Assembly: GCA_021904315.1 (NCBI GenBank)
Contig: CM038922.1
Location: forward strand, 9,151,347-9,215,346
Source: Sphagnum magellanicum
Taxonomy: Eukaryota > Streptophyta > Sphagnopsida > Sphagnales > Sphagnaceae
Reading direction: 5' to 3'
Length of the DNA stretch: 64,000 bases
Position numbers and translations under genes: made by a program
Part shown: positions 13,901 to 47,831 of the stretch, one piece after another
How positions within the stretch are numbered: the stretch's first letter is position 1
How the letters are laid out: each line of letters starts with the position of its first letter
Notes under the pieces: model-generated
What the model was told of the DNA's origin: nothing
What the model saw: only the letters and a program-made list of their open reading frames with translations
The model's database searches: none

Positions 13901-16900
13901 CTGGGTCACAGACCTAATCTCCAAATGGAATGGAGGGACACAATCACTTTGTCCTTTCATACATGGGTTTCTAGTTTCTAAACAAGTCTTTGTAGTGTTG
14001 AACTCAGGGGGGTTTCTTTAAATGTTAGGATATATAGCAAAACTGGTGATTATCAACAAAAAGATTCAGTCTAATGTGGCTATACGCCAGATATAAAAAT
14101 TTTAAGAATCAAATTACATTTTGGCTACCTTCTGCAAGGTGTTGTAACGAATCTGAAATTTTGGAAATATATTAAAAGTCTGGCGAAATGGGGTCAATTT
14201 TTTTTACTCAAAAGAAACCTTTGAATAAAGTAATCTGTAAAGTCAGGAAAAGACGCACCGGAACCCCCTGTTTGTTCACATTGGGGATGAGATTTCAAAA
14301 AACAGGGAAAAAAAAAGTACGCTAGGCTTCAACGGGGTATGAAACTCAGGTTAGCACCAAACTAGGTGCTAAACTGAGTTTGCCCTATCCTTTCTTTTCC
14401 TGAACGCCTTCAACCAATCACTGCTGCTGCTATGTGTACTTTAGCTATAAATCTTCTCTTGCATTTAATTCTGAGTCTCAGCTTTTCATACCCTTATTTA
14501 ATAAAATTTCATTACGTTGCGGACAACAGGGGTTGAAGCATCAAATGAGGGGTGAAACTCAGGCCCAACAAGGCATGACTTTACAGGTAACTCTAATGTG
14601 TTGAATCATTATTTTCAGGTGGAAAACATGTGAAAATTTGCAACCCATACCCCGCCTTATCCCTCCCCCCAAACACTAATTTGAACTAGCATTGCAGGCT
14701 TCTTATTTTTTAAACAGCTTGACACTATGTGCAATCAACCAATTGGGAAGTTCATCCTAATGCCATACTGATTTTTTGAGCTGAAAGGCTTTAATCATTT
14801 TCAATGGGGTTATATGGCGTAATTTCATGGATCCTGATAGAACGAAGAACCCCACATGTAGGATCCCAGGACATTGGACAGATTTTGGTAAGGGGGTACA
14901 GGGAAAAACTAAAATGTAAAAGTTTTTTGAATGCTCAAAAATCTTTCCGCAGGACGAGGCAATTTCTTGCAGACGCTTCGTCATGGTCAGTGAGTGAAAC
15001 CCACCCTTGTCCTACTGGCCTCACATGATGTAACTCTCGCAGGGCAAATGCCTCCCTCTATGCATAGTTCGGGGGTCTTTTTGGAATTGCCCTTTGTTGC
15101 AATGTTATCTTGAGAGGTCACCCCATCCATAGACTACCATAGTAGCTTGGCAGATTCAATGCATGTCTGTTGAATAATTAATTAATTTTCAGATTTTCAT
15201 TTCAACAAAAAGAATTTTTGTGAAGATTCAATGTTTCCCTTCACAATTTTTTGTTATTTGAAGGAAAATAATATAATTAGTGTCAAAGCTGCCAAGGTAG
15301 TAGGGTATTTTAATTCTTTGGATGGTATCCCCCTCCCCCTCCCCGCTTTGTGTTACAGTGCCCTTCCTACAACAAAAGGGATACCATAGTACAACGGCAG
15401 CATCAACATATGTTTGTCAAATAATTAATTAGTTAATTTTGGTCAAAATAGAATAATTTCAAAAACGTGGGTACCTATTCCTCTTTCATAAACATACACC
15501 CATAGATCCCTACCACTTTCAAGGTTTAGGCATAGTATTTTTTCTCTTTTAAGGAAACATTATTCACAAATATAAGGTGCTTTTTAGATACAATAAGATG
15601 TTTTTTATGATCTGGGAAACAAACCATTCTTCCTACTGATTCACCAACAAAGCACTGAATTTTTTTTAATGTGAGAAGATTGACAAACCCATCAAGAATG
15701 GATCAAAATGTCTCTTTCCATCAGCTTGTTGTTGCCATAGTTATGGTGCATTCATACTTGAAGTAAGTTAAATGAAAATCTACGTGGCATCCTAGGTGGC
15801 ACCCAATGTTAAATGGGCAATAGCTTAATGTTAAGTGAATGTTAGCTTAATATAAAATGTTTGTGATAAGTAAGTGTAAGTTGTAAATGACTAGCATGGT
15901 GTTAGGGGACTCAACATTAAGGTCCCTAACACCAAGTGTGAATGCACCTTTACACACACAATGTATTGTAATGTCAACAAGGTTACACAAAGGCACTAAA
16001 ATCATTCCATGTTTCTTATTGCATGGCCATGTACTTCACATTGGAGAACTACAGGTAGGCTAGAAATTTGTAAGTAATTAATGTTCAGAACATTGGGTAC
16101 ATTTAGTTGGAAATTTATAAGTAATTACTGTTGAGAATATTTGATACATTTGAAATGAAAGCACAAAGCTTTTCAACTCTTTTGGCCCAATTGTGCATTT
16201 GTGTTGCCAAAATGATTTTTTTTTCCTCTTCTCCAAATACATGAAAAGTTCATAAGAACAAGTTTTGTCACTATTAATTGATGGTATTTACTGTCACATA
16301 ATTATTTATAGGGGAAAAATAATCATTAGTTAATTTTAAAATGGAATTCCAACAAAAAAATATTATTGCACAATAATCTACTAAATCTAATTTATGAATA
16401 GTGTGTAGAAACATGTTTGAAAATTACACTTGGATGTTGTTGGAATGAAAGTGTTCCAAAGAAGGTAGAAACCTTGTATATTTTCTTTTTTTTTCCTTTT
16501 AAAAAAGAAGTAAAATATACTTAGTTTTCTTGTGATATAAGAAATTACAGATCTCTGTTTTTTTATTCTTTTCTTCATAAATGTTTGTTGAAAAATAGTT
16601 GCAGTCATGAATTCAACAATTCTGGTGAAAAACAACATCAAATAGTGAAAGCAGTGAATTTCCACTGGGACAACCTGCATTTGAGCTCAAAGATTGAGCA
16701 AGTCAATAACTCCCTTCCTACCACTGCATTGGTTTTCTAGAATTATTGTTTGTTTTCCACACATTTTCTAGAAAACAGGGTTAAGAAGTTGAAGGCAAGC
16801 ACAAGGTGAAACTTTTCTTGGCATTTTTTTTTGTTTCTAAACCCGATAGCCGTCACGTAGGGGTGATTTGGGACTATCAAGATCACGGACATTTTGTCAT

Positions 16901-19900
16901 CCTAGTTAGGTTGCAACAAAACCATTTTCCATTCTTTTCAATAAATGAATAGTTGTGGGCTTTGTTATAAGGAAATTTGTCATTAACTTTAAAAGAACAC
17001 ATCCTACCATTCAAAACAATGACAAATATCACCTATTGAGGGTTCACATGTTCGGTCACAGCTCTCAAAGCTATGCATTTTGATCAATATTTGACCCATA
17101 GAGCTACGAGGCAATTGTGAATACAACTAGAGCCCAATAGATGTAACAGAAAGTTGATGTTGAGGGACAAAATGTGTGATGAAAGCAACCTAATGGAAAG
17201 ACCTAAATAACTAGAGACTCCCAGATTAATTCCCATCACTTTAATGAACAACATCAGTTTACCATCAAATGCTTTGAAACACACCAAATGGATTATGATG
17301 GTATAATAATATCATGTCTAGTAATTGGATCCAACACGTGCATGTTATGAATATTACATTGCATGTACCTAAATTCATGAGTACAATTGTTTCACTGAAT
17401 TTGTCTAAAATTCAATCAATACTTGAGATGTCAGATATTGCATGAACTCAAAGGTGGGGGGGGCCCAAAAGAAGTGCATCAAAATTTTAACACAAATATT
17501 CAAAAGCTATTTGTTCAGCCAATCTTAGACTTAAGGATTACAAGCACCAATGCGATGTATGCCACCAAAGGCTTTTTAAGCTAAATTGCACCTTTTTTTC
17601 ATTAAGTGATAGGGGGTATGTTAATTTTGTGTGGAAAAAGTGGTTTCAAAGCCAAGTCTTGACCATAAAATTTGCAGACATGGCTAAATCATGCCCAACC
17701 TCTTGAAGCTAGTTGCTTCTGATTTTCCCTCAATTGAAGGTAAGGGTTGCCAAAGAGCATGATTTAGGATTAGGACTTCGCCTAACAACACTTGGACACC
17801 ATTGATGTCAACACATCTCTAAGGGTTGATGTGAGGTAGTGGAAGGTTTTTCCATGCTTGAATATGGTCCTTGGATATTTTTTGTAAGTAATGGAAGAAA
17901 ATGGGTGACATTTGAAAATTTAATTTGTCTTCATAGGGCACATAAACTTGAAAGTGGAATTCTTTTGAAATAACTCTCGTCATCATTGCTTGACCCCGCC
18001 CCCAAATTTCCAAAGGGGTCACCATTTAATCTCAAACTAGCATGGACTATGTTGTTGGCCCAAGTGTGAACTCATTACCCAACTAATTAAATTTGAATTT
18101 TTACTAATTTTTTTATGGAATTTCCTATTATGTTCTTTAATAGATAGAAGAGCAATTTATGATTATATAAATGGAAGAGCACAGTCACCATGTTCATACA
18201 CCCTAAAACAAAACAAAAATCCACACTCCTCCCCAAAATATTGGAGCTGTACCTATTGGTCATTTCCCCAAAAATAAAAAAGAAGCCCCCATGCCACCAC
18301 TGGTCCACCGCCAGTTGACACAAATCATTAGTAGTAATGAAATGTGTAGGGTAATGCTCCAGCCCGAGTGCATTGCACAGCATAAAAATTGACGGATTTT
18401 TTATGATTTTTAAGAACTTTTTACCCTTTTTCGCTGTGATATCCGCAAGATACCCACCGGGTATCACAAGAAACAAACCAGAGGCATTTCGATAAACAAA
18501 ACACTTGCTTGAGACAAGACAAAACACACACACACATGGTATGGTCGTACCCTGGTGCTCAACTAGGTAGTGTCCTTGCGATGTTCCCTCACATGACTTC
18601 AGGATGTCTCTTCAAAGTATAGAATAGTGTTTTGATTATTCCTTCAAAAAAAAGTGAAATTCAGTAGGAGTGAGTGCATTGAAATGCCATTGGCAACAAC
18701 AAAACTAGCAGGCTCACTACATAATGACTTTGCCCTTTTACGACAAGCTTGAACAAAAAGATGTCAGAACCATTTTTTTGGGGGGGGGCTAAAAATCGCA
18801 TTTTACCTATGTAATCCAGAGCCTTGGTATGAACACAATGTCATGTGAAGCAAAAGGAATTTCGCTCAATTTCACCAACGCAAAAAATCATGTATTCTTC
18901 CGTCTTAAGTTATAACTGTTGTTTTGCACGGGCATAAAATAAATTGTTAGTTCCAAATGTAGTGGTTAAAAGAGGATCATTAGATCAAATAGATTGTCAT
19001 ATTTTAAGTTTTTTTTCCATCTGCTTTCATCTAGACCCATCTTTAGTTTCACCTCTTTATTTCTTCCCTCATTTTTAGTCTATTTTGAGTGATTAAAAAC
19101 TTGATGGGTGCGCTAACTGGGGCTTTACGAAACTTCTTTGTACACCAGAGGCAAACAGGCAACAATCAAAGATTTTAAGCTTGAAATCCTAATCTGTTTT
19201 AATTCACTCATCGTCAAACACCACCGATGACCGCTTACACAAAATACCTCATATTTTCCCCATTCCTTTACCAAATTGAATCATAATCTTATGAAAAATG
19301 AAAAGATCATGGAACCATGTAATATGGTTAGGTAATTTTAATGGTCTTGTCCAATGGCTTCATGCCATTTCATGTATGTTAAAGCCCTGGAACCGGGCAT
19401 TTGTAGGGCATTTTAGAAATGCCCTAGACCCTAGGGTAGAACCTCGGGTCCACAGCATAAATGTGCAGCTGCTCTGGGGACTTGAGTAAGACCCATACTT
19501 GAAAGGAAATTATGTTTTTCATAATTTCCCTCCATACAATGGGAGGACGAGCATTAGGGTAGGGGCATTTCAAGCAATTTTTTAATTTATTTTTTTCAAT
19601 TTCTCGATGGAGCGAGAGTGGCGACAATCACTAGGCAGATTGTGACTTAATTGGCGACATGTTTCCAATGAACTCTTAAATATTGTAGCCAATACATATG
19701 GATGTGGTGACACTAACCCCAAACGAAATTTATAAAATAAAAAAAAGGGTGATCACAATCTGCATGGCACAATGCTTCTCGAAACATTTTGCTTTTTTTT
19801 ATTACCTCAAATGGGACTTTCAGGTACTACTATCCCTTCAAACTTCAGCAGGGCAAAACAAGGGACCATGAAGGTTGCCACTACATTCAAATGGGCCCCC

Positions 19901-20160
19901 ACAAATCCCATCACATGCCCCAACTTTGGAGCCTCAGAATTGGTCCAAAATGAATATTATCTCCGGCGGAAGCTTATCATCGCGTCCTTGGGGATGCAAA
20001 ATTCACATCCCAGCCAATAATGGCAAATAGATTAGGTGTTGGCCCCAAGTACTAGCGACCACAAAAGTCTTTATGCAATGTGATAAAAATGCAATCTATC
20101 ATGTTTGACTTCCCAGCCGCAAAATGTAGGCCAAAGTAGCAGAAGACTCGAAATGGATAA
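10901..20160. other. gene-poor right block of duplication copy 1
   Basis: AT-rich sequence, about 95-97 percent identical to copy 2 after removing the LINE and Helitron there. No ORF shows protein-like sequence conserved in frame between copies. It contains the MITE at 15745 and homopolymer runs. I see no exon that I would defend. Confidence 0.6.
15744..15949. mobile_element. Tourist/Harbinger-like MITE, copy 1
   Basis: Terminal inverted repeats GGTGCATTCATACTTG (15745-15760) and CAAGTGTGAATGCACC (15933-15948) differ at one base. They are flanked by TTA at 15741-15743 and 15950-15952, the usual PIF/Harbinger target duplication. About 200 bp, noncoding, with repeated AATGTTAA words. The counterpart in copy 2 is 42284-42462, so the insertion predates the duplication. 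Confidence 0.7.
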
Positions 20161-20241
20161 TTTATCTATGGATGGATGAAAAGAAGTGGATTGAAATCGA
20201 TCGTCCAAAAGTACAGAAAGCTAACACTTATTTTTGGTGTA
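20160..20241. repeat. left part of a 112-bp repeat unit, split by the Helitron
   Basis: CTATGGATGGATGAAAAGAA through TTTTTGGTGTA matches the first part of the 112-bp unit with one 3-bp loss. The unit resumes at 30307 with TGCGCAGAGACAGAATCGG. Joining the two parts gives one complete unit, so 20242-30306 is an insertion. Confidence 0.9.
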
Positions 20242-20339
20242 CTAGTGTGAACCTCGTGCATAATGCACAGGTGTGTTATTTCAACAATGTTTGGTTGATG
20301 TTTTTGGTTTTTTAAAAATATTGTTCTTTTCAAACAACC

Positions 20340-20590
20340 ATTGGTCCCCCCCCCTCGCCTCGGTCCTTTGCATTTCTCACTCCGGTTCCTTACCCCATCG
20401 ACCCCCCTCGCCTGGTCCTTCACATTTCTCACTCCGATTCTTTAACCCATCGACCCCCCCCCCCCCTCGCACCTAGTCCTTCGCGTCGCATTTCCCACTC
20501 CGGTATTTAACCCATCGATCCCCCCCCCCGGCCGATCCTTCCCATTTCCCACTCCGGTTCTTTAACCCGTCGATCCCCCCCTGCCCGGTC
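20340..20590. repeat. C-rich minisatellite, about 57-bp unit, in Helitron 3' region
   Basis: Units of the form GGTCCTTCGCATTTCTCACT, CCGGTTCTTTAACCCGTCGA, then a run of C. About four units here. The minus strand has G-runs of 6-11, so quadruplex formation is likely. Open frames over it are repeat artefacts. Confidence 0.8.
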
Positions 20591-20625
20591 CGTGGATTAT
20601 GTGGGGGATTCCTAGACATGAGCAC

Positions 20626-20736
20626 TCAGTCGGCCGGTTTTAGAACAATCTGAGAAAAGTGGACAGCTTCTCCAAATGGCTGCAAAAAAAACTCTTGAGT
20701 TTCATAATTCAGCAGCTCATCATCATCATCACTCAT
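20626..20736 (-). other. 36-codon ORF, possible captured exon
   Basis: Minus ORF MSDDDDELLNYETQEFFLQP continuing to a stop at 20626. The acidic start and balanced composition differ from the surrounding low-complexity Helitron sequence. Capture of a host gene start by the Helitron is possible. I do not recognise the protein. Confidence 0.25.
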
Positions 20737-21134
20737 GAACATTATTATTGTATTTCTCGCGACGAAGGAAGCGGCTGCTGCAATCCCTCCAACCGCGGGG
20801 CAGCAGCACGGTAGGGGGAAACCTGTGGGGGACAGCTGGTGGGGAACAACAGGTGGAGGAAAACTTGGTGGAACATTTCCTATTTTAACTACTGTTGCTG
20901 GTCCTTTGAACTTCCTTTAATAGGCTTTAACTGCTGGTTAACCCCCATTCTAGTTTTTTCTTTTTTTTTAAAAATGAACGTTTTCAAAAGTCTTGGTTAA
21001 CTTTCCAGTTTTCCACTGTCCGTTCGGAGTCAGCAGTTACTGGCACTGTCCGTACCGAGCGGAGTCAGGGGAGGCTGCCTTCGTCCGTACCGAGCAGAGT
21101 TAAAGGAGGCTTCAACCTTCCTTTACTATATGTA

Positions 21135-21500
21135 ATGTGAACCCGTGCATAATGCACAGGTGTGTTATTTCAACAATGTTTGGTTGATGTTTTTGGTTTT
21201 TTAAAAAAACTTTTCTTTTCAAACAACTGTTGGTCTCCCCCCCCCCCCCCCCCCCCACCGCCCCGGTCCTTCGCATTTCCCACTCCGGTTCTTTAACCCG
21301 TCGAGCCCCCCCGGCCGGTCCTTCGCATTTCTCACTCCGGTTCTTTACCCGTCGATCCCCCTCGGCCGATCCTTCGCATTTCCCACTTCGGTTCTTTAAC
21401 CCGTCGATCCCCCCCGGTCGATCCTTCGCATTTCTCACTCCAGTTCTTTAACCTGTCGATCCCCCCCCCCGCCGATCCTTGGCATTTCCCACTCCGGTTC
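21135..21500. repeat. second copy of the Helitron 3' end with C-rich minisatellite
   Basis: TGTGAACCCGTGCATAATGC (hairpin at about 21145-21157) is followed by GTGTTATTTCAACAATGTTT and a poly-C minisatellite with about five 57-bp units. It repeats 20246-20600. The terminal CTAG is absent here. It looks like an internal, superseded 3' terminus. Confidence 0.75.
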
Positions 21501-22004
21501 TTTCTTGATTCTGTGATTTTGTTTTTTTTTATGAAATACCCTAACCCAATGATTCTTTTGATTCTGAAAATTTTCAAATACCCAGAACCAATGGTTCTTG
21601 CATTCTGTTTTTTTTCTTCCAAATAGTCAAAGCATATGGGTATTACAAAAAAATAAAATACCCACCCCACACTGGTATTCTTTTTGTCCACAACAACAGT
21701 TTCTGAAACCAACCAATGGTGCATTAAATATGTTCCCATAGGTTCCCCAAACTCTTGTTCCCAATAGCACCACACGTGACACCTTATGTTAGTCACATCT
21801 TTTGTCCAAAGGTATATACTTGTCTTTACGTCAGTCATATCCTTTGTCCAAAGGTTTTTTCTTCTTCTTCTTCCTAGTTTATTTCCTTCCCATTCTGTAG
21901 CCACTGTCCGGCGGAGTTACTTTGTTTATTTAAAATAAAAAATGTAGTATGAATCCATTTTTGCATGCATTTGACGATACATATTACAAAATTACACCTA
22001 CCAA
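21501..22004. other. Helitron sequence between RepHel stop and internal 3' end
   Basis: Noncoding AT-rich sequence. CACTGTCCGGCGGAGT at 21903 resembles words near the ends of the small Helitrons at 48.4 and 21.0 kb. No gene seen. Confidence 0.45.
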
Positions 22005-25000
22005 CTACATTTCCAAAACCTCTTTATATACAACATTCCGCATGTATCCATCGGGACCCTGGCCGTTGAAAATCTTAATGTTTGCACTACTTGTGACCCG
22101 TGAAATAGCAACATAGAGCTGACCATGGGAATAGACCGGAGAATATACCCCAACGTTGTTGAATGTTTGACATTGACACTTGTTGATTGTGATCGCAAAT
22201 GCCACTCAAACTGGAAATTGACGACGATGCAAAACAAATGGCCAATCAGTCCCGGAGGGGGACATGATGATGCGGGGTATGAACACACGTTTGCCGACAT
22301 TGTTTCCTGTGATGATTTCCGCTTCAATGACACGCTGACCCAATCTTTTGACAATCAACCTCGTACCATTGCACAATCTTATTGATTGATTGAGATTACG
22401 CAACAAAAGGATTGGCACACCCACTTTGAGTTCGAGCTCGTGATTTGCGATACCGCTAAATCGCAAAGTGTCTAAAAATTCCACCGGACAATGAATCCAT
22501 TGAAACTCCTATAGCAACACTTACACCTTCTTCTGTTGGAGTCAAAGAATTTGCGTTCAGGTATGTGTGCGATTCTTCAGATAGCGATTCTAAAATTACA
22601 TTGTTGACTTCATCAATGTTAGTATTTTTGGGGGCTATAATGCTACGTTACATAAGATACATGGCATCTCGAGAGTGGCACCGGTGATCCGGATAGATGG
22701 TTCGGATTAATCCTCTTAAGTTGCAATCTTCTGGTGGCAGCCTCATATGGGATGGAATCTTGATCCAATCTGGATCGACACCTTCTTCTCCTACAATGGC
22801 GGGAAGACTACCGTCTCCAACATTCAACATCCATTTGGCAAACTCTCGCTGCTCTTCAGAATTGGTTGCCATGACTTACATGTTGATATGAAGATGAAGA
22901 ATTATAACATGCTGCCAAAGATACGACCGAGGCAAAGAAGCACTGACAATGTCTTCTCGTCCTCCCTTGGAAACCACGGGCAAGATTTGTCGAAAATCCC
23001 CACCAAGGACCATGGTTTTCCCACCAAAGATTTTTTCGATTGCATGTGCATCATCTAACTACATCAAATCACGTAGGGTGCGATTAACAGCTTCGAAAGC
23101 TCGGCAATGCATCATCGGTGCCTCATCCCAAATGATTAGATTAGCTTTACGCACCAACTCCGCCACTTTCATCTGTTGTGTGATGTTGCAAATTGACTCA
23201 TCGTGCAGATCAATCGAAATCTTGAATCTTGAATGGGCGGTTCTGCCGCCCGGAAGCAACAAAGATGCAATTCGTGATGAGGCAACTGCAAGCACGATTT
23301 TGCCTTGCCCTCGTAGACGGGACAGAAGTGTTGTCCAAATAAATGTTTTGCCGATTCCACCACTACCATACACAAAAAACAACTTGCCCTGTTTGTTTGT
23401 CACGACATTCAAAATAATTTCGTATGCGTTGCGTTCATCATCATTGAGCCTATCTTCTGCATTGTCCGCATCTGTGGTCAATGAATGTCGATCATAAGCC
23501 AGTTCTTCTTGGACCAATCGGTTTCCTCCATGAACAAAAGGGATGTAATTAGACTTGGGAAGCGTTGGAAAATCTTCCAGGCGGTGTCCATTGCGGATGA
23601 GAACCTGATCGATCTCATATAATGCACGATCCTTTAGTGCATCCTCAGGAAGGGTGACAGTTGGATCAGCACGCTCGCAACGTGTCATTGCTTCAGTGTC
23701 ATCGCTCAAAGACTCCCAATGTGCATGCCATAGCTGTCTGGGATTCGTGACCTCACAAAACATCAACATGGAAGCAAACATGTCACACAGCTATCGTCCT
23801 GAAGCCCAAACACCGGCTTTTTCCGAGGCTTGATCCCATTCATTGTCGTCTGCAAGCAAACCCATCGCAATGCATGCATCTTTGAATGTGTCGTGCTCTC
23901 TGCCATCCACTGTCCGCAAATGTTCGTAAGATGTGGCACCTTTGACGTAGTTCAGCAGCATTCGCAAATAGTAACGTTCACCCGATGTCGAGTGTGCATA
24001 ATACATGCGACCAATGGCAAAGCCTTGTTTGCGCAGTGTCCATCGCTTCAACTTCCGATTCCACACCCATTGTTGAGGGAATTGATCGAACGTAAGGCTT
24101 CGTGCAATTTCCGATTCTTGGTTTGTTTTGAACCATTCTGTCAGCATTGTTCTAGAAATGGCTGACCGTGTTGCCACTTCTTGCACATCATCGTCATTGT
24201 AAAACAGCACCGTCTGCTGATTGGGTAAATGGTATTGCAGACGCTCAACAATAGGAAACCGTTCATGCATATCAAACTTGAAGATGCGCCACGCTGCTTC
24301 CGATGCAAATACATAGCGACAGTCGAGATATTTTTTAATTTCATCAATATCAACCACATTTCCTTCGATGGCATTGTCGCTCTAGCGCGAGATCTCAACA
24401 GTCGCACGATCATGTCCTTTATATACGTATTTGAATAGATACTTGACTGCACGAATGTTGTTGCAAACTTCAACGTTGATGTGTGCATCATATTTGGTCG
24501 ATAAATAGGCATTATGCAGTACCACCCAATGATTGTCCAATTCAATGCCATGAACCAAAACTGTGTGCCCCGTATCTCTACACCGATAAATAGGGTATTC
24601 GTTTACATCCGTCACCATCTCGGATTGGAACTTGCGTGGATATTGTTTCTTGCATTTGCCTTCTTCCATGCACGGGGCATTTGGGAACACAGCTCCACAT
24701 GGACCATGCATCGTGCATCTGGCAACTGTCTCGTGGGCCAACTTGTTTGTTTCTGAATTCGGAAGTTCAGCACTGATCATGCGGTCCACGTCCTCGACCA
24801 TGTGTGGCTTGCAATCTTCAGTAAAGAAGATGAGAAGGTGTGCATGCGACAGCCCACGATTTTGAAATTCAACGACATAGATTCCTGCAATCGTGCGTCC
24901 CAAAATATGGTTCTTGTGAATGTCATTGATCAACTCCTTCAGCTTGATTTTGAATACTCGGGTTACCAAATCGGGTCGATCCTGAGGTTGCTGTCCGAGC

Positions 25001-26562
25001 AACAACGCTCTCTTGATTTCAAGCCATTGGGGATTGCAAGTGAATGTAATAAACGCATCCGGGCAGCCGGCCCATCTACAAATTGCCATGGCATCTTGAT
25101 AATTCTGAACCATGTGACGTGGACCTACTATGAAAGAAGATGGCAGAATGATCCTCTGTCCAATGGCAGCAGCGCTAGTGTCACCTATAGCGATGGCGTC
25201 TTGAAGGCCTTGATAAAGATCCGCGCGAAGTTTTTTTTTATTCAGGCGCAGATACTTCAAGCGATTTTGTTCGATAGCCGCATAGGCATCCACAATGTAT
25301 TGTTGCCACAATCGGTCACCCTGAAGCAACGTAATGCCGTCAGTGTCTCGATGTTGAAGTCGATAACCATAAAATTCCGCCATTGTCACATTGCAATGCT
25401 TTCTTTAAAGCTCAGATTCTCTCGCATGGTCTTCATCCAAATCTACATCAGCAACAACAACATTAACCAGAATATTCAGATGCCATCCATCCTCACCGTA
25501 AGGAAATAACAATGGATAATGTGGAGCCATGTATCCGACATGTAGTTCAGAAATGCGTTGAAACGGGCCAGCTTGCTGAGCAAGGACGACGTCACGTCTG
25601 TCTACAGCCTCAGAACCATCTCCTACCATCAATGCAACAACTTCATCGGCCGTCGGCACATTGTATTGGCGGGCATCCTTTGTTCGAAAGGCAATGAGAC
25701 GCAATTTCAGATCCAGGGGAACACCTTCTGTTGCCATCATATCCCTTGCCATTTTGAACACTTCGACATAGGGATTGATATTGTACATCATGGTCAACAA
25801 TCGATCCAACGTCGTTGGATCAAGCAAGGGCATAATAGCATGCCGGTTTTCACGTTCATGTTTCGTATCATGAATGTATAACTGTGCAAACTGTGGCCGT
25901 TGTCCTTCGGTAGGACATAGGGATCCAATTTTGTGATAAAGTTCACTTTGAATGTGAAAGGAGTACGGTCCAAGGCTTCCTGTTACCGAGTCATCAAATT
26001 TGGCACCGAAGGAAATGAATGCCAACACCGAATTGTACATGCGAATTTCATCTCAAAATTTGACAGCATTACTCTCTTTGCTGGTTAAAAAAACTTCCAG
26101 CTCTTACAGTGTTGCAGGAAGATTTGGCAACAGAACTTTGCCATTTTCGCAACACATAGAAAATTGTGGGTTATTGTTCGTTGAGTTTGCCAATCGTTCT
26201 TTGATCCACATTTTTGCGCTGCAGAATCCACATATTGTGTCCATTTTTCCACAATCCCATCGTCCTGGGGCTGACACATCTGCGTCTGCAAATAATTGTA
26301 ATGCATCATTGCGAAGAAAAGGATGTTCACGTTGCTTAACACGCCATTCTCTTTGTAGGCGATTGCGACGTTCATGTGCAAATTCTGACGTGCCTTGAAC
26401 TGACGCATCTCCATCTCTAAACAATTGTAATGCGTCATTACGAAAAAAAGGTTGTTCACATTACTTAGCACGTCGTTCTCTCTGTAGGCGATTGCGATGT
26501 TCATGTGCAGATTCTGACGTGCCTTGCGCTGACACATTTTTGTCTCTAAATAATTCGAGCAT
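22005..26562 (-). pseudogene. Helitron RepHel (rolling-circle Rep plus PIF1-type helicase), decayed
   Basis: Runs from ATG at 26562 to the stop at 22005, about 1,500 codons. In order: a short N-terminal module duplicated at 120-bp offset; a Cys-rich zinc-finger-like part (CGKMDTICGFCSAKMW ... CCENGK); the Helitron-like N domain; the Rep domain with HUH motif GLSHAHLLIFF near 24840 and the two-Tyr motif KYLFKYVYKG near 24420; and a PIF1 helicase with Walker A YGSGGIGKTF near 23360, Walker [19 protein letters not shown] and C-terminal YVAISRVT. One frame holds from 26562 to about 22500. It is interrupted by stops near 26463, 26104, 26056, 25405, 24382, 23791, 23059, 22873 and 22648. A single frameshift near 22495 and a further stop at 22206 follow. 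Codons such as SGR-TAG-LCDMF and RDLM-TAG-LDDA look like former CAG. Confidence 0.93.
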
Positions 26563-27196
26563 CTTGGGGCGGGGGGTTTCTCCTACACTCTTCGAGGAAG
26601 GTCAAGGTTACACAGAAATTAATTTGTAAATCCCCATCAAATCCAGATGATTTAAGATTAATGGAAAGTTCGCAAAGCTCTCAATGATCTAGAGCTAAAC
26701 TAAAAGTTTTTTTATTTTTTATTTTCATGTGTTTTTTGTTTTTATTATTCTTTTGTATAATAAAAATAAAGTGTTTGTTTTTCATTTTTGTATTTTTTAT
26801 TATTTCGATGCAAGTTTGAAGTTTGGAGAAAGAAGATACACCTCATTCTTTTTCAAGTAGGCTTTTTCTTCATTATTATTTTTTTTTAAATTTTTAATTC
26901 CTACTTTTTTTGGGGTTTCTTCTTTTTTGTAATTTTTTTGTCTCTTAAAATTTTCCTGTATTTCTCTTTCCTTGTTTCAATTGTTTCCATTCTTTGTTTC
27001 TATTTTTTATGTTTTTACTTTTTTTTTTGTTTATGTTTGTTTCAGGTTTTATTTAATAGGAAACAAAACTGCTTTGACGACAGTATAGTCTGATGGGCAT
27101 TTAGTTGAACAAAGAGAATCCAATCTTTGAGTGCATGGAAAGAAATGGTACGAAATAGAATTACAATGCATAATGTATAGAGTCTCTGCGACATAC
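26563..27196. other. T-rich low-complexity stretch in the Helitron
   Basis: About 26700-27050 is dominated by TTTTT/ATTTT words on the plus strand. No gene is seen between the RepHel start and the captured KH exon. Confidence 0.5.
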
Positions 27197-27268
27197 CTGA
27201 ATGCGGACCCCATAACGACTTTGAAGACTCTTAATTGTCTCACCTCCCCTACCAAAGATCAACCCAAC
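27197..27268 (-). pseudogene. captured exon of a KH-domain RNA-binding protein gene
   Basis: On the minus strand, TTTTCCCAG (acceptor), then 72 nt coding VGLIFGRGGETIKSLQSRYG and four further residues, then GTATGT (donor), phase 0 on both sides. The GRGGETIKSLQ string is the GxxG loop region of a KH domain (usual form IGKGGETIK), as in plant FUBP/Nova-like proteins. It lies inside the Helitron, in the same orientation as RepHel, and the rest of the domain was not found. This fits Helitron gene capture. Confidence 0.75.
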
Positions 27269-27321
27269 CTGGGAAAACCAAATGAAATGCTCAGTTTCAA
27301 ATCTGTGGAGTCCACAACTTC

Positions 27322-27600
27322 AACACCTTGCAAACTGGACGCCTTGTGGGAAAAAAAGACAACAACAAAAACAAATTTCCATTTTCTTCACCTATCGGTA
27401 TACGAATCGGAAAGTTGAGGCAGCCTCGCTCTATTCTTGCCGAAAACCGGGTACCATTACGTTAGTCACAACCCGTATGGTTCCGTCCACGTATGCACTC
27501 CATCGGGCACACAACTTGGCTCCCTCCCTCCTTCCCTCGCTCTCGTGTGTCTGTTTCATTCTCTTTCTTTCCCGCCTCTTACTGTGTGCAAGCATCCAAT
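27322..27600. repeat. 279-bp direct repeat, first copy
   Basis: AACACCTTGCAAACTGGACG to GTGTGCAAGCATCCAAT. The copy at 28525-28803 has equal length, the same orientation and about 92-94 percent identity at an offset of 1,203 bp. It contains a CT-rich stretch and several CpGs and could be a captured promoter/leader. The ends are not TG...CA. Confidence 0.8.
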
Positions 27601-27764
27601 TGCTGTCTACCTACAGAAAAAAAAATTCCTATAATCTAGCATATTGCCTATCCTCTCGAAGTCTTTTGGAAAATTCATTTATGCATTCCCGACTCCGGGG
27701 TTTTCTCTAAATAAATATAACATGCTTTACAGTCCTGCTAACTGTCTAATTCATCATGTTGTAG

Positions 27765-28027
27765 GCACATTCATGTTGCAGCATAGAATGCATCCTACAA
27801 AGTCAAACATCTTTGCACATTCTAAAACCCAGAAACTTCTTGAGAGAAATCCCTCACTATGGATAAAATATACAGACTTTCAAACATGTCTCCACTTTAA
27901 CGTTACAGTGCCATTTTGCAGTTCACTATTGCAGATGCTCTTAAAACATGTTCACCGAGGTTCACTATATGACCCTACAAAAATATTTCTTATGGGTGGG
28001 GACTGCAAGTATGTGAGAGACCTCTAA
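27765..28027 (+). other. ORF of unknown meaning, possible captured exon
   Basis: After a possible acceptor (GTTGTAG) the frame reads GTFMLQHRMHPTKSNIFAHS and stays open to 28027 (FLMGGDCKYVRDL). The composition is protein-like, but the end overlaps the possible MITE at about 27935-28270. No family recognised. Confidence 0.2.
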
Positions 28028-28524
28028 TAGCAACTCACTTGGACCAATCGAACTATCTAGTTAATCAGAAACAGGGAGAAGGTAATAAATACAATTTGAC
28101 TGTGTTTACTGGACTTTTCCAAGTCTCCTTGAGGGCTCTGAAAGCTATTTGTTTTTTCAGTGTCCCAGCATTCTTCCAGTGTATTCATTGGCTTTGACTG
28201 ATGAACCTCATTGAAGATTTCCTTTGTAGGGTCACATACTGAGTGTTGGTGGAGATGCTCTTAGAGCCCTTGAAGCAGGTAAGCAAGCCAAACTTTTAGA
28301 AAATATTTTATACAATAAGTAATGGCTAGTGGTAACAACCTTTTTGCCAAGAATTTGAGAACGATAGAGATATACCGGAACCGGGTTTTTGATTTTTTTG
28401 AGAACGATGGTTGTGAATCCTATGAACCCCTTGAAAATTGCCAGGGATTTGTTCCTGATTCTAATAACTGCCCAACACTTGTCTGAACATAGTTACCAAC
28501 TTGTTTAGATGGAAACTTTGGGGA

Positions 28525-28803
28525 AACACCTTGCAAATTGGACGCCTTGTGGGAAAAAAAGACAACAACAAAAACAAATTTCCATTTTCTTCACCTATCG
28601 GTATACGAATCAGAAAGCTGCGGCAACCTCGCTCTATTCTTGTCGAAAACCGGGTACCATTATGTCAGTCACAACCCGTATGGTTCCGTCCACGTATGCA
28701 CTCCACCGGGCAAGCAACCTGGCTCCCTCCCTCCTTCCCTCGCTCCCGTGTGTTTGTCTCGTTCTCTTTCTCTCCCGCCTCTTGCTGTGTGCAAACATCC
28801 AAT
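28525..28803. repeat. 279-bp direct repeat, second copy
   Basis: Partner of 27322-27600. Homology begins and ends abruptly on both sides (AACACC ... ATCCAAT). Confidence 0.8.
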
Positions 28804-28884
28804 GTGGTTATGTTGAATAATATTACTATGCCCCACATTCATTGTTCCTTTACACTTCTGGTCCTCCTGATGAAGCCTGCTATT

Positions 28885-29349
28885 GAATTCGACACCACTT
28901 AGTGATCACTCAAGAGCGGATCACAGCAATAGTAAGTAAGTGAATAGAAAGGAGACTGTCCATTCGGCTCTTTGGATACAAGCAGTAGTGATGGAGCAAG
29001 AGGGGATCACAACAATAGTAATGCAACTTTTTTGTAGTGATTTCGATACCATTTAGTGATCGCTCAAAACTCACGGTCATCACTGTGTGTGAGCACACAC
29101 ACAGGCATCGAATTCAAGCCATGTGCAAGTTCAGCAGCTTCAGCATTGTCTGTCCGGCTCTTTGGATGCAAGCAGTAGTGATGGAGCAAGAGGGGATCAC
29201 AGCAATAGTAGTGTAACTTTTCTGTAGTGATTTCGACACCACTTAGTGATCGCTCAAAACTCACGATCATCATTGTGTGTGAGCACACACGCATGCATCG
29301 AATTCAAGCCATGTGCAAGTTCAGCAACTTCAGCACTATCCGTCCGGCT
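28885..29349. repeat. 190-bp tandem repeat near the Helitron 5' end
   Basis: GTCCGGCTCTTTGGATGCAA recurs at 28960 and 29151, and GTCCGGCTT at 29342, a 190-bp period. Each unit includes CGACACCACTTAGTGATCGC and GTGTGTGAGCACACACG (near-palindromic). About 2.4 units, with GTCCGG words also found at other Helitron ends here. Confidence 0.8.
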
Positions 29350-29388
29350 TCATGGGCGGCTTCATCGTTCCTTTATTGTAAGTAATGA

Positions 29389-30297
29389 TCTTATACATTA
29401 ATTCGCTTGTCTGTCTGTGACACAACAATTCTATGGCAAAATTGCATTTTCTATGGTAGAATCGGCAAGTAGCGGAGAGACACACGCCAACAGAACCGGC
29501 CATTTTCTATGGCAGAACCCGCAGGTGGCAGAGAGACACACCATCGATCACATCGTCACCTCAATCCAGGTTCTTCGAAGCCAAATATTGGGGTTTCAAG
29601 TCCAGGTCCAGGTCCAGGTCTCGATCCATGTGCAGCTTGAGGTTCCCAAACTAGGTCTCAATCCAGGTTCTTTGAATCCAACGATTGGGGTTTGAAGTCC
29701 AAATCCAATTCCAGGTCCAGGTTTCGATCCACTTGCAGCTTGAGGTTTGGGGTTTCAAGTTCAGCTCCAGGTCCAGGTCTCGATCCACGTGCAGCTTGAG
29801 GTTCCCAAACCAAGTTTCAATCCAAGTTCTTCGAATCCAATGATTGGGGTTTGAAGTCCAGATCCAACTCCAGGTCCACGTCTCGATCCACGTGCAGCTT
29901 GAGGTTCCCAAACTAGGTCTCAATCCAGGTTCTTCGAATCCAACGATTGGGGTTTGAAGTCTAGATCCAATTTTGGGTAAGAGTCAAAACTATGGATTTC
30001 TCCATTTCTGAAATGGATTTGTCTATTTGTGCACCCAAAAATAATCATATTAATTGTATTATTATTTATTTTAAAGGTACCCATTCTTCAACCATATGGT
30101 AATAATAGCACCAGTGGGTTTTTTTTTTTGCGAATTGTTTGTGTTTGTAGCCAAAATGGCCATCATCTGTAGGAAGATGTGGAAAAAGTGGGCAATTATC
30201 TGAAGGAAGATTTAGCCAAACCTGGCTAGAAATCCAAACATGAAAGCACAAAGCGTTGGGGGTGGCTGGAGTGGCATAGCCACGGGTTACACACTAG
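29389..30297 (+). mobile_element. nested nonautonomous Helitron, 909 bp
   Basis: Starts A|TCTTATACATTAATTCG (29389) and ends with hairpin GTGGC-ATA-GCCAC (30271-30283), then GGGTTACACACTAG|T (30297). Its 5' end matches the type TCTTATATATTAAAAC of the element at 54813. It sits only nine bases inside the 5' end of the larger Helitron, in the opposite orientation. Removing it restores TGA|TATATATAA at the outer 5' terminus. It carries tandem repeats and part of a foldback element and has no gene. Confidence 0.8.
29560..29965. repeat. tandem repeat inside nested Helitron, GGTCCAGGTC-rich
   Basis: Units contain GTGCAGCTTGAGGTTCCCAA, then GGTCTCAATCCAGGTTCT, then ATTGGGGTTTGAAGTCCA. Repeats occur at about 29635, 29790 and 29900 with unequal spacing (about 110-150 bp). 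The Trp-rich minus frames over it are repeat artefacts. Confidence 0.75.
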
Positions 30298-30306
30298 TAT
30301 ATATAA

Positions 30307-30893
30307 TGCGCAGAGACAGAATCGGTCATACTTTTCCAACTATGGACGTATGAAAAGAAGCAGATTGAAATGGATCGTCCAAAAGTACAGAAAGCGGCTA
30401 ACACTTACTTCTGGTGTATGCGCAGAGACAGAATCGGTAATACTTTTCGAACTATGGACGGATGAAAAGAAGTAGATTGAAATGGATCGTCCAAAAGTAC
30501 AGAAAGCGGCTAACACTTACTTCTGGTGTATGCGCAGAGACAGAATCGGTAATACTTTTCGAACTATGGACGGATGAAAAGAAGTAGATTGAAATGGATC
30601 GTCCAAAAGTACAGAAAGCGGCTAACACTTACTTCTGGTGTATGCGCAGAGACAGAATCGGTAATACTTTTCGAACTATGGACGGATGAAAATAAGTGGA
30701 TTGAAATGGATCGTCCAAAAGTACAGAAAGCGGCTAACACTTACTTCTGGTGTATGCGCAGAGACAGAATCGGTAAAACTTTTCCAACTATGGACGGATG
30801 AAAAGAAGTGGATTGAAATGGATCATCCTAAAGTACAAAAGCGGCTAACACGTATGGTGTGTGCGCAGAGACAGAATCGGTAAAACTTTTCCA
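30307..30893. repeat. 112-bp tandem repeat array, left border of copy 2
   Basis: ATGGACG phrases at 30342, 30454, 30566, 30678 and 30790 give an exact 112-bp period. The last unit is shortened near AACACGTATGGTGTG, as in copy 1. With the broken unit at 20160-20241, the array between the copies had about six units before the Helitron arrived, against two at the left of copy 1. Confidence 0.95.
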
Positions 30894-31226
30894 GGGAAAC
30901 AGTTCCGCTGCTTCTCATCCATCATTCATTGGTTAGCCAGCGACAGTGAAGTCGGCACGCTTTCATCGTTCGATTCTCATCCATGTAAGGAAACAAAATG
31001 TCAAGAGTTTTTGGTCAAGGAAGCCTGGCTTCATCTGAGAAAGGTCCACTGGAACCAACCAATTCGTCTTGCCTCCGCAGCCTTTTTTTTTGGTTACTGC
31101 CAAAAAGCGAAATTCAAAATTAAAAAATTAAGTGAATTAATCGCCAGAAGGGAGGGGGCCCAAAAACAAAAAAATTCGCCAAATTTCTGCACTGGGTTTC
31201 CAGTTTGTATTCAAAAACGTATAATT

Positions 31227-31600
31227 GAAGGATGATTAAAGATTTGTACTTCAAATTTGGTTTATATGGCCAGATTTGGCTAAATCTTCCTAGGGATGGT
31301 TGTCACTTTTTCTACTTCTTCCTATGGAAATTGCCACTTTAGCTACAAACTAAAATTCCTGGAAAAAAAAAAACTATTACAAACAAAATTACAATTTTTT
31401 TCTTTTTAAGGAATTTTGAAAAAAAAAATTCTATTACGAACAAATTACACTATTCCTTTTAGGAATTTTAGTTTGTAGCCAAAGTGGCAGTCGTCCACAG
31501 GAACTTGCAAGATGAAGGAAAAGTGAAAAGATCCTAGGAAGATTTAGCCAAATCTGGCTATAAACCAGAAATAAAGTACAAATCTGCAATCATTCTTCCA
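31227..31600. mobile_element. foldback element, copy 2
   Basis: Same inverted arms as 4659-5030 (AGCCAGATTTGGCTAAATCT and its reverse complement), with only point changes and A-run length differences. Confidence 0.75.
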
Positions 31601-33320
31601 TATTTTTCGCTTACATAATGAAAACTAAACATATGAATGTGGTGGTTTTTTTTCTTTCAAATTATGGCGACTGAAAACCTCCAAAATCACTTCTTTTTCG
31701 AATCTTTAATTTTTAATTTCTCTTTTTTGCGAAATACCGCCAGAAAAGAAAACAAAAAGGGAAGGTTTGCTGCCGCTTCCGTGACGTTTGTGCGCAAGTG
31801 ACTAGGTATTCCGACAAATGCACAGCAGCAAAGTTTCCCCTCTCTCGAGGATCGCGCGGATGTCTCTGGAGCCGTTGCTGTCGCAGTAGAGCTTGCCATT
31901 GCTCAACCAGCAGAGCTTGCGAAGAACCATCTCAAGTAGCTGCAGTTGTTGGAGAGGAGGAACAAGCTTTCTCTGAGTTTTTGCCAGTGGGGGGGTTTTT
32001 GCAGTGCTTTCCAGAGCTTGTAGCTTCCTCTCCCGGCTGGAGCGGAACTCGCATTTGGTTGCCGTTGTACTGTAATACATCAACAACAAGAGGTCTGGTC
32101 TGCTTAACACAGAAAGAAAGATTTTTTTTTTGCCTCTTTCTGTGTTTTTCTCTGCCTTCGGAATTTGGCAAGTCAAGAGTTATTTCAAAAGGCTTCCTAC
32201 TCATGAGTTGGGGGAGGGTGCCCTTTTCGAAGCGCACCTTTGTGCTCAAATGATCATCATCATGTTCTTAGGGCTCTTCGTGTTGTTGTGTTTCTCTTTC
32301 TCTTCCTTTCTACCCTTCTTTTTTCTGTGTTCCAATTTCTTTGGTCATCTCCTTCATTGACCCAGCCAACCAGTATCATGGCTATGTTCTCCTCTTACTG
32401 CTGCTCTTTGGTCATGTGACACAAACTCTGGCCACTACAATACACTGTTGTTGCTGCTGAATGTACTCTCCCTATGTAGGCCCCTGTAATATGTATTATG
32501 CCTTCCTCAGCTTGGATGCTTTCTTTTAACAGGGACAACCAAAAAGGAAATGAAGTTTACCCTCACGAGCTTTGTTGCAGCTTGAATGAGGATCGGTACT
32601 GTTTTTGTGAGTTTTGTCTTTTGATGAGTGGTAGCCAACTTCATGGCCTAATCTTTCCCTTGCTTCCAGAGGTGCAACAGAAACTCAGGATGCAGCTTTT
32701 GCACAATGGTTGGCCTGAAATTTTGGGTTGATTATTGTTTACTTATCTACACATACCATCGGGAGCTGATGGATGAAGTCAGTGGGCAGTCATAGCAGCT
32801 CGTCCCTGCTGTTCATGATAAAGCCGATGTTGTGTTGATTGTGCGTTGATGGTGTGCTGATGGTGTGGTACTTTGTGAGTGACTCGCATAAGGTTATGAC
32901 TGCAACCATTGTCATGTTACCATCTACAGTTTTTTTGTTGCGGAGATGTCTCTGCAACTTCATAGATAGGTTGCTGTTAAAGGTGACTGATGATGCCTGT
33001 GATTGCTGCTGCTGTTCATGCCACTCCTCATTTCTCTCTGTGGTTTCCAAGGTTGTGTCTCCTCGTTTTACTGCTCACTCATTTGTTGTAAGAATACAAA
33101 CATGGTTGAGTGTGGAGTGTGAAATTCAGATTGACAAAATTCAAGTGGGAAGATAATTTTATGAGAACTTCGTCTCTCTGATGTCATTGTCAGATTTGCA
33201 TTTTACACCTATATGTTATAGGATGGGAACCCAAGTGGAAATTTTCAGAATGTGTACCCAATCATCTGGTCTTCTCCACTCTACCACCCTGTACCAACTG
33301 TGTAATTTGGATACAACATT
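31601..33320. other. conserved block of copy 2, counterpart of 5031-6739
   Basis: About 99 percent identical to copy 1 over 32000-33300. Short indels near 31803 and 31990 shift the minus-strand frame relative to copy 1. It borders cassette B instead of cassette A. Confidence 0.5.
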
Positions 33321-33337
33321 ATCTATCTAAATGATCT

Positions 33338-33529
33338 GTGAGAAGAAATCGCTGCCAAAGTTTCCCAATGAGCCCATTCTGGCCTTACTACAAACTGCAG
33401 GAACGTCAACTATATGAAACCCAATACCTCAAGCTTCGCTCCTGTCTGAAATTGCTCGATGCAAATGCAAGTTTTTCGGATTTCACAATAGAGCATGTCC
33501 AGAATTGGATTTCTGGGGCTAACCTGTAG
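33338..33529 (+). other. exon-like ORF of unknown family
   Basis: Open frame containing MSPFWPYYKLQERQLYETQY and ending HVQNWISGANL, with good protein-like composition and no low complexity. The 3' end runs into the hairpin at 33510. It could be an exon of a gene whose other parts were lost at the cassette border. Not recognised. Confidence 0.35.
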
Positions 33530-33584
33530 AGATCTTGTTACATGGAGTCCATTGAACAAGATCTCTACAGGTTGCCCCCAGAAA
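33510..33584. other. near-perfect 75-nt hairpin
   Basis: AACCTGTAGAGATCTTGTT (33521-33539) and its exact reverse complement (33555-33573) flank ATGGA-G-TCCAT. Pairing continues outward through TTTCTGGGG / CCCCAGAAA with few mismatches. It could be a small-RNA precursor fold or a cruciform made by inverted template switching. Confidence 0.8.
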
Positions 33585-33664
33585 GGAACAAGTTTCTGCT
33601 CAATGGAATAGATTTCTCCCACTCAGAACACATCCTGGAAACAGAATACGAAGAGTGGAAATAA
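33542..33664 (+). CDS. 40-aa ORF of unknown function
   Basis: MESIEQDLYRLPPERNKFLL then a Glu-rich end (ETEYEEWK) and TAA. It starts in the loop of the hairpin, and the right arm codes EQDLYRLPPE. The composition looks coding. It may be a last exon rather than a whole gene. Not recognised. Confidence 0.3.
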   Translation: MESIEQDLYRLPPERNKFLLNGIDFSHSEHILETEYEEWK

Positions 33665-33920
33665 AGAACAGAAGGGAGAAGAAGAGGAAGAAGAAGAAGA
33701 GTTTGGAACTTAAACAAGATAAGAACACCTAACTGAAGTGGCTCGTGGCAGGGACTAGGTATATCATGGATCTCTCTCTCTCTCTCTCTCTCTCAAAGCA
33801 AGCTTGTTTGTCAGAGAAATGGGGATGATGATGATGACAGTTTAGGGTTCGGTGGATTTCATAAGCATGGTCTTCAGTGTCCTTGCCCAGTGCAGGAATC
33901 TCGAGTAGTTTGGGGTTGTG

Positions 33921-34682
33921 ATGGCACAAGGAGACAAGACAAAGCAAAATGATGGGCACAAATCCTGTAAGGCGCTCGCTCTTGGACTTGTCAAGTGCCT
34001 TAATGAGTCTTCATGCATCAAGGTCTGTGACCTTTCTGGTAGCAGCAGTTTTCTTCGTGAATTAAGCATGCAACCTCTGCTGTAATTTTTCCTGTTCCGA
34101 GATCTGATGTTGAGATTTCCGGATTGATGCTGGGTACAGGAGGAGAAGAGATCTTATAAAGAGTGTGTTTTTGGGAAGAATTTATCAGCTTTTTCTTCAG
34201 AATGTGAGGAGTTCCGAGACAAATACCTTCAATGCAAGCATGATCAGGTTGTGAAGCTGGGGATCCCTCAATCCCACAAACCCATATATTTGTTTGTTAA
34301 AGAGTTTGCATCTTATGCTAGACTTCCAGATGATCCTCAAACTTATATGTCTTGTTTGTCAAAGAATTTGGCATCTCATGCTCTTCCACCTGATCCTCAA
34401 ACTTATGTCTGGGCTTGTGAAAGAGTTTTTGCATCTCTCGTGTTCTTCCAGCCATACTCAAACTCATGTATTGTTTGTGAAAGAGGTTTGCATCTTTTGT
34501 TCTCAGCTACAAAACTGTTTGTGAAAGAGTTTGCATCTCATGCTCTTCCAGCTGATACTCAAACTTGTGTATTGTTTGTGAAGGGGTTTACATCTTTTGT
34601 TCTCAGATACAAACTGTTTGGGAAAGAGTTTGCATCTCTAATGTTTTTGCAGCTGATACTCAAACTTGTGTGTCGTTTGTGA
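33921..34682 (+). CDS. COA5/PET191-like twin CX9C protein with minisatellite-coded C-terminus
   Basis: Exon 1 is 33921-34022 (34 codons, MAQGDKTKQNDGHKSCKALA ... ESSCIK). The intron, 34023-34139, is GT...AG and 117 nt, phase 0. Exon 2 runs from 34140 (EEKRSYKECVFGKNLS ... CEEFRDKYLQCKHDQ). The pairs C-KALALGLVK-C and C-EEFRDKYLQ-C are twin CX9C motifs. The order KSCKALALGLVKCL, ESSC, EKRSYKEC matches COA5/PET191, a mitochondrial intermembrane-space factor for cytochrome c oxidase assembly. The usual C-terminus (MRARIRGNKGY) is missing. Instead the frame continues about 145 residues through a minisatellite (FVKEFASxALPxDxQT repeats) to a stop at 34682. Splicing at CAG|GTTGTG (34248) instead would shorten it. 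Spacing of the second pair from the middle Cys is one residue longer than I expect. It could be a diverged duplicate or a decaying copy. Confidence 0.7.
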
Positions 34683-34880
34683 AAGAGTTTACATCTTATG
34701 TGCTCAGAGAGAAACTGTTTGTGAAAGAGTTTGCATCTTGTGCTCTTCCAGCCGATGCTCAAACTATGTCTTGTTTGTGAACATGTTTGCATCTCAATAC
34801 TCTTCCAGCTGATTCTCAACCCCATGTCTCATTTGCCAAAGAGTTTTCATCTTCTGTTTTCAGATGCAAACTTTGTTGTC
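34290..34880. repeat. minisatellite with alternating unit lengths (about 58 and 42 bp)
   Basis: About eleven units begin near GTGAAAGAGTTTGCATCT. Three units of about 60 bp come first, then units of about 44, 57, 42, 58, 42, 56 and 58 bp. Long units contain CTTCCAGCTGATACTCAAAC; short units contain TGTTCTCAGATACAAACTGT. The alternation makes a higher-order repeat of about 100 bp. Confidence 0.85.
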
Positions 34881-35769: not shown

Positions 35770-35905
35770 ACATATCTCTTATCAACGGCAAGCATCACCA
35801 TTGATGAAAAAAAGACAACGACAGAAGGCAAATGTAGCAAATTGAAGGCGTAAATTTCCCTGGCAACTAGATAATGGGAACCTATCCAAATGGAAATAAC
35901 ACCAT

Positions 35906-41256: not shown

Positions 41257-41276
41257 CTAAACCCTAAACCCTAAAC
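41257..41276. repeat. interstitial telomere-like tract (CCCTAAA)
   Basis: CTAAACCCTAAACCCTAAAC replaces about 35 bp that copy 1 still has (14691-14727). The flanks TTTGAACTA and CTATGTGCAATC are shared. Confidence 0.85.
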
Positions 41277-47824: not shown

Positions 47825-47831
47825 AGCTCTC

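What the first reader, a model, noticed from the sequence alone, without database searches (positions are those of the whole stretch)
20160..30341. A 10-kb Helitron split one 112-bp repeat unit exactly at the duplication junction
Left flank ...TTTTTGGTGTA and right flank TGCGCAGAGACAG... join into a single intact 112-bp unit (apart from one 3-bp loss) with the A|T host site and no target duplication. The empty site can be read directly from neighbouring units. This makes it a clean internal control for Helitron insertion into a tandem repeat.
Basis: seen in the sequence. Interest (0 to 1): 0.75.

Follow-up and report, generated by a model that had tools for sequence, protein, structure and literature searches.

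The report
Stacked Helitrons inside one tandem-repeat unit
Several related jumping elements of the Helitron type sit on top of one another at a single spot inside a short repeated sequence; neighbouring repeats show what the spot looked like before, and this fits the textbook way Helitrons insert rather than anything new.

Summary
The core observation holds. Left flank (to 20241) and right flank (from 30307) are phase-continuous in a 112-bp repeat. They map to 4172|4173 in an intact unit elsewhere in the window, with an A|T site and no target duplication.

Two parts of the interpretation need correcting. (1) The 10,065-bp block is probably not one Helitron. Its right edge (CTAG at 30294-30297, then T) reads as the 3' end of a separate 909-bp Helitron in + orientation (29389-30297), whose 5' end matches another Helitron in the window at 31 of 35 columns. 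The RepHel element (minus strand, broken frame) lies between that one and a ~0.9-kb Helitron at 20242-21137, which it abuts head-to-tail. (2) Nine bases (30298-30306) are either the RepHel element's 5' terminus, which makes the empty site exact, or extra.

The window also holds a ~16-kb direct duplication (copy A 4090-20156; copy B to 51208). The repeat array starts each copy. The block lies 76 bp inside the array edge at the A/B junction, not exactly on it, and entered after the duplication. A 272-bp Helitron of the same family in copy B has a cleaner A|T empty site in copy A.

Verdict: ordinary Helitron biology, well displayed; interest modest.

The parts
20166..20241 (+). left part of the split 112-bp unit (first unit of array B), 3-bp loss and several substitutions
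30307..30893 (+). right part of the split unit and the rest of array B (about 5.2 units)
4090..4311 (+). array A, about 2 units, with the uninterrupted site at 4172|4173
20242..30306 (.). whole inserted block, 10,065 bp
   Evidence: host flanks continuous across it
20242..21137 (-). H1: non-autonomous Helitron, about 0.9 kb; 3' end hairpin + CTAG followed by host T; 5' end abuts the H2 3' end
   Evidence: 3' end and hairpin; 5' region matches 29355-29387 at 27 of 33 bases; junction
21132..30306 (-). H2: RepHel Helitron, interrupted by H3; 3' hairpin at 21145-21157, CTAG lost; 5' end either 30306 (reading a) or 29388 (reading b)
22206..26052 (-). broken RepHel coding region of H2: Rep 24382-25404, PIF1 helicase 23059-23790, Pif1 2B domain 22206-22508 (another frame); in-frame stops at 25405, 24382, 23791
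   Evidence: Pfam; stops; frames from coordinates; PDB match to Helraiser
29389..30297 (+). H3: 909-bp non-autonomous Helitron in opposite orientation at H2's 5' edge, A|TC ... CTAG|T
   Evidence: 5' end match to the 272-bp Helitron; termini
30298..30306 (.). 9 bp between H3's 3' end and the host unit; H2 terminus or extra bases
48368..48639 (-). Hs: 272-bp Helitron of the same family in duplication copy B; empty site in copy A near 17599
54813..55084 (+). E55: probable 272-bp Helitron, same 3' end; 5' end by A|TC and 12 of 13 bases shared with H3 (15 of 2000 shuffles as good)
4090..20156 (+). copy A of the direct duplication
30307..51208 (+). copy B of the direct duplication, with later insertions

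Best explanation
The block 20242-30306 is a cluster of three related canonical Helitrons at one A|T target in the first 112-bp unit of array B. Shown: the host unit is phase-continuous across the block with no target duplication; the left edge is a minus-strand 3' end (hairpin, CTAG, host T); a + strand CTAG|T lies 9 bp from the right edge; a Helitron-type Rep and helicase lie on the minus strand between them. Inferred: H1 or H2 entered the unit first, after the 16-kb duplication; H2 and H1 ended head-to-tail because an A|T is present again at a Helitron's 5' edge (host A plus the element's first T); the H2/H1 junction then lost a few bases; H3 inserted last, in inverse orientation, at or 9 bp inside H2's 5' end. 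Movement would be by the Rep/helicase rolling-circle route known for the family, supplied in trans for H1 and H3. The present H2 frame is broken.
For: Phase continuity of the flanks. 3' ends with hairpins: as good a fold in 2 of 200 shuffles for H1 and 0 of 200 for H2's inner end. H3's 5' end aligns from its first base with the 5' end of the 272-bp Helitron, 31 of 35 columns, 0 of 2000 shuffles as good; BLAST finds it in the window at E 5e-4. H3's last 14 bases equal the last 13 of the 272-bp Helitron apart from one inserted base (read). The H1 and H2 5' regions share 27 of 33 bases, 0 of 2000 shuffles of the 50-base ends as good. A CTAG|TC head-to-tail joint less one 7-bp deletion at a 2-bp repeat gives the observed H2/H1 junction. 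Rep PF14214 E 2e-57 and PIF1 E 3e-49, Pif1 2B domain E 8e-21. Copy A has the uninterrupted site, so the block entered after the duplication.
Against: H3's 3' hairpin is weak: 43 of 200 shuffles fold as well in + orientation. The 9 bp at 30298-30306 fit reading (a) only with a 5' TT instead of TC, and reading (b) only as extra bases. The H2 5' end under (a) matches the 272-bp Helitron's 5' end only weakly (56 of 2000 shuffles as good). The 33-base H1/H2 match was noticed by eye before it was tested: it is absent from the self-BLAST at E 1e-5, the short-query BLAST found only 18 columns of it at E 1.9, and I estimate its expectation over the window at about 0.3 (not a call). The 7-bp figure assumes H1 began with TC directly before that match; under reading (a) the loss would be longer. 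No whole genome is held for this window, so H1, H2 and H3 are not seen apart elsewhere.
Confidence: 0.75

Rival explanations
1. One 10-kb Helitron with 5' end at 30306 and 3' end at 20242; the inner 3'-end-like and 5'-end-like sequences are internal repeats.
For: Outer ends fit the host site exactly; RepHel is on the minus strand, as this orientation requires.
Against: 5' terminus is TT; the right edge reads as a + strand 3' end, with a matching 5' end 909 bp inside; a second 3' hairpin lies at 21145-21157.
Confidence: 0.12
2. H2 and H1 moved together: in the donor, H2's 3' end was bypassed and the next 3' end downstream (H1's) was used, so H2+H1 entered as one unit.
For: Inner CTAG is lost while the outer one is intact. 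Bypass is shown for Helraiser (PMC4778049, passages), and multiple termini from nested Helitrons are described in maize (PMC3288121, passages).
Against: H1 seems to have its own 5' end starting at the junction, as two separate insertions also predict. The inner hairpin, the terminator in Helraiser, is intact here. The inner CTAG may have been lost after insertion.
Confidence: 0.3
3. The two flanks come from different units, with whole units lost between them at or after the insertion.
For: A loss of whole units leaves the phase unchanged, so the alignment cannot exclude it; arrays A and B differ in unit number.
Against: Needs an extra event; no part-unit is missing or added apart from the 3 bp and possibly the 9 bp.
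Confidence: 0.12
4. Assembly misjoin in repeats.
For: A tandem array, a 16-kb duplication and several related Helitrons are the kind of sequence that misassembles.
Against: The edges are Helitron edges at A|T rather than random breakpoints; the 272-bp Helitron shows the same A|T rule independently.
Confidence: 0.05

Closest known systems
Helraiser / Helibat1 (canonical RepHel Helitron of bats)
   Same: Rep of H2 matches Helraiser at 344 bits (PDB 7lcc); CTAG 3' end, hairpin near it, A|T target (PMC4778049, passages)
   Different: H2's frame is broken by three stops and a frame change; other host; H2's own 3' CTAG is lost
[quoted passage not shown]
   Same: second element's 5' TC follows the first one's CTAG; insertion at host A plus the element's first T is one of two models given there (PMC2267711, passages)
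   Different: here the joint has lost bases, a third element sits inverted at the other edge, and the repeat unit supplies the empty site
Nested and multi-terminus Helitrons of maize and Fusarium
   Same: non-autonomous copies within or beside an autonomous one, insertion into 5' ends, inverted nesting proposed (PMC3288121 and PMC5148889, passages)
   Different: Fusarium elements have non-canonical termini; here the termini are canonical where intact

Membership tests
Helitron (canonical) | Insertion between A and T without target duplication | tested here: met
   Block and 272-bp Helitron both, against uninterrupted homologous sites; for the block exact only under reading (a), otherwise 9 extra bp
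Helitron (canonical) | 5' TC | tested here: inconclusive
   Met for H3, the 272-bp Helitron and E55; H1's first base not there; H2 has TC at 29388 or TT at 30306
Helitron (canonical) | 3' CTRR | tested here: inconclusive
   CTAG in H1, H3, the 272-bp Helitron and E55 (4 of 5 elements); lost in H2
Helitron (canonical) | Hairpin shortly before the 3' end | tested here: met
   H1, H2, the 272-bp Helitron and E55: 0 to 2 of 200 shuffles fold as well; not met for H3 (43 of 200)
Helitron (canonical) | Rep (HUH) and PIF1-type helicase in the autonomous member | tested here: met
   PF14214, PF05970, PF21530 on the minus strand; frame broken
Helitron (canonical) | No terminal inverted repeats | tested here: inconclusive
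   The two outer ends of the block are similar in inverse orientation; under the composite reading this is because H3's 3' end faces right. Not tested formally element by element
Helitron (canonical) | Rolling-circle movement | not testable with these tools
   needs an active element
Helentron / Helitron2 | T|T target and an endonuclease beside RepHel (definition recalled) | tested here: not met
   A|T target; no endonuclease domain in the ORFs of the block that were scanned (not every ORF of the block was scanned)

The most novel reading that the evidence does not exclude
One A|T dinucleotide was used three times in succession: each Helitron insertion leaves an A|T at its 5' edge (host A plus the element's first T), so the site renews itself and collects same-family Helitrons in either orientation. 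The array units and duplication copy A give the starting state.
Probability: 0.25. Interest if true: 0.45.

Novelty: new member of a known kind. Interest (0 to 1): 0.3.

Why it matters
It gives two independent sequence-level checks of Helitron insertion (A|T, no target duplication) in a single window, and a relative order: duplication first, Helitron insertions after. It also warns that finding edges by empty site alone can pass a cluster of Helitrons off as one long element. If the renewed-A|T reading is right, it offers a simple cause for head-to-tail Helitron clusters.

Tried and rejected
Rejected: that the CTAG-like match at 30294-30297 is merely the inner part of a minus-strand 5' end. 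A matching + strand 5' end lies 909 bp away and aligns from its first base with another Helitron's 5' end.

Rejected: that the block predates the 16-kb duplication. Copy A has the uninterrupted site.

Weak or empty: of 6 comparisons of end regions, 5 scored below the best of 200 shuffles; the sixth (20900-21160 against 29200-29420) scored 36 against a best shuffle of 27. Those comparisons read both members on the minus strand, so they could not show the H3 match, which came. No Pfam match for 6 of 10 proteins (4 of the 6 within the block), 7 of 10 (two of them scanned before) and 9 of 10; the tenth and the Pet191 match were below the curated cut-off. No whole genome is held for the window. The DNA collections on hand hold phages, plasmids, prokaryotes, viral and metagenome contigs (metagenome scans were capped at 0); I searched none of them.

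Literature: seven searches were answered, listing 5 of 5, 15 of 54, 15 of 31, 15 of 49, 12 of 326, 15 of 15 and 5 of 5 papers. In those listings I noticed no paper on three Helitrons stacked in one tandem-repeat unit. Of five papers I saw only the passages named; of the rest only listings.

Full report
What was checked. The window looks eukaryotic, probably plant (DUF7748 above its cut-off and a Pet191-like match below it; the plant assignment is my inference). The finding says that a 10-kb Helitron splits one 112-bp unit between 20241 and 30307.

The repeat and the empty site. Tandem Repeats Finder gives 5.3 copies of a 112-bp unit at 30306-30893. Self-BLAST adds about two units at 4090-4311 and a 76-bp piece at 20166-20241. 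The left piece ends at 4172 and the right piece starts at 4173 of array A; in array B the same join is found one period apart. The junction sequence is present intact at 5 of 7 other unit junctions and with one base changed at 2 of 7. A random phase would fit 1 time in 112 (my arithmetic). The left piece has lost 3 bp and carries further substitutions; 71 of 79 columns match each of four units and 69 of 79 a fifth. So the flanks are continuous, with an A|T at the site and no target duplication. Loss of whole units cannot be excluded.

The duplication. Self-BLAST shows a direct duplication: copy A 4090-20156 and copy B up to 51208. Six aligned segments lie at 0.8 to 6.0% K2P distance, 3.3% over 13,104 sites. 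The array lies at the start of both copies, so at the A/B junction the end of copy A meets the array. Homology to the end of copy B stops at 20156 and the array begins at 20166. The Helitron block is therefore 76 bp inside the array edge, not exactly at the junction. The last unit of both arrays shares the same small deletions, so at least two units existed before the duplication. Copy A lacks the block, hence it came later.

The block is composite. On the minus strand it carries a Helitron Rep domain (PF14214, E 2e-57), a PIF1 helicase (E 3e-49) and a Pif1 2B domain (E 8e-21). The Rep matches Helraiser at 344 bits over 335 residues, with the HxH and YxxxY stretches aligned (motif names recalled). 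One frame from 26052 to 23059 holds stops at 25405, 24382 and 23791 before the one that ends it; the 2B domain lies in another frame (coordinates). The left edge is a minus-strand 3' end: hairpin, then CTAG, then host T. A second copy of that end lies at 21132-21170, hairpin intact and CTAG lost; 20243-20595 and 21133-21482 align at 80.8% over 369 columns.

The right edge is the key correction. Read on the + strand it is a 3' end (CTAG at 30294-30297, followed by T), although its hairpin is weak (43 of 200 shuffles fold as well). A + strand 5' end, A|TC, lies at 29389; its first 35 columns match the 5' end of the 272-bp Helitron at 31, with 0 of 2000 shuffles as good. This defines H3, 909 bp, in opposite orientation to the RepHel element. 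Between H3 and the host unit lie 9 bp. Either they are the first 9 bases of the RepHel element's 5' end, which makes the empty site exact but the terminus TT (reading a), or its 5' TC is at 29388 and the 9 bp are extra (reading b). I cannot decide; the match of (a) to the 272-bp Helitron's 5' end is weak (56 of 2000 shuffles as good).

At the left, the sequence that follows the inner 3' end (21137 downwards, minus strand) matches the RepHel element's own 5' region at 27 of 33 bases, 0 of 2000 shuffles as good in that local test. This was noticed by eye first; the short-query BLAST found only part of it, at E 1.9. The observed junction equals a head-to-tail joint of the two ends less one 7-bp deletion at a 2-bp repeat, if H1 began with TC directly before the match; under reading (a) the loss would be longer. 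So 20242-21137 is best read as a separate ~0.9-kb Helitron, H1, lying head-to-tail with H2.

An independent control. In copy B a 272-bp Helitron (48368-48639, TC ... CTAG) interrupts sequence that is whole in copy A. Its joined flanks and copy A align over 59 columns without a gap, 54 identical, the site being A|T. A LINE-like insertion in copy B (about 43588-47824, RVT_1 and Exo_endo_phos domains) has a 7-bp target duplication, read by eye, so the comparison does show target duplications where they exist.

Known or new. [quoted passage not shown] PMC4778049 (passages) shows the terminator role of the hairpin and bypass of the 3' end. PMC3288121 and PMC5148889 (passages) describe nested, multi-terminus and 5'-end insertions; in the latter a run of three tandem Helitron copies is mentioned for Metarhizium. 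PMC4683698 (passages) gives the defining termini. The locus is thus a new example of known behaviour. Its value is that repeat units and duplication copy A supply the empty sites in the same window.

Noticed in passing
4090-20156 and 30307-51208: A ~16-kb direct duplication, 3.3% K2P over 13,104 aligned sites, uneven between segments (0.8 to 6.0%).
   Followed up: partly
6740-9583 and 33321-35907: Within the duplication the two copies show no BLAST match to each other here: copy A holds a DUF7748 gene, copy B a Pet191-like stretch (below cut-off) and a 60-bp repeat region. Each copy may have lost a different part.
   Followed up: no
43588-47824: LINE-like insertion in copy B with a 7-bp target duplication by eye; copy A is empty.
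   Followed up: partly
54813-55084: Another probable 272-bp Helitron of the same family, containing a run of 26 G; same length as the one at 48368-48639.
   Followed up: partly
48413-48638: The 272-bp Helitron holds a 110-bp tandem duplication of its inner part.
   Followed up: no
30118-30252: Part of H3 resembles the inverted-repeat element at 31224-31601 and its relative at 4656-5031 (71.6 to 78.0% identity in four matches), as if H3 had captured half of it.
   Followed up: no
27322-27600 and 28525-28803: 279-bp direct repeats, 93% alike, inside H2.
   Followed up: no
58067-59491 and 59618-61042: Direct repeat of about 1.4 kb, 90% alike, 126 bp apart.
   Followed up: no
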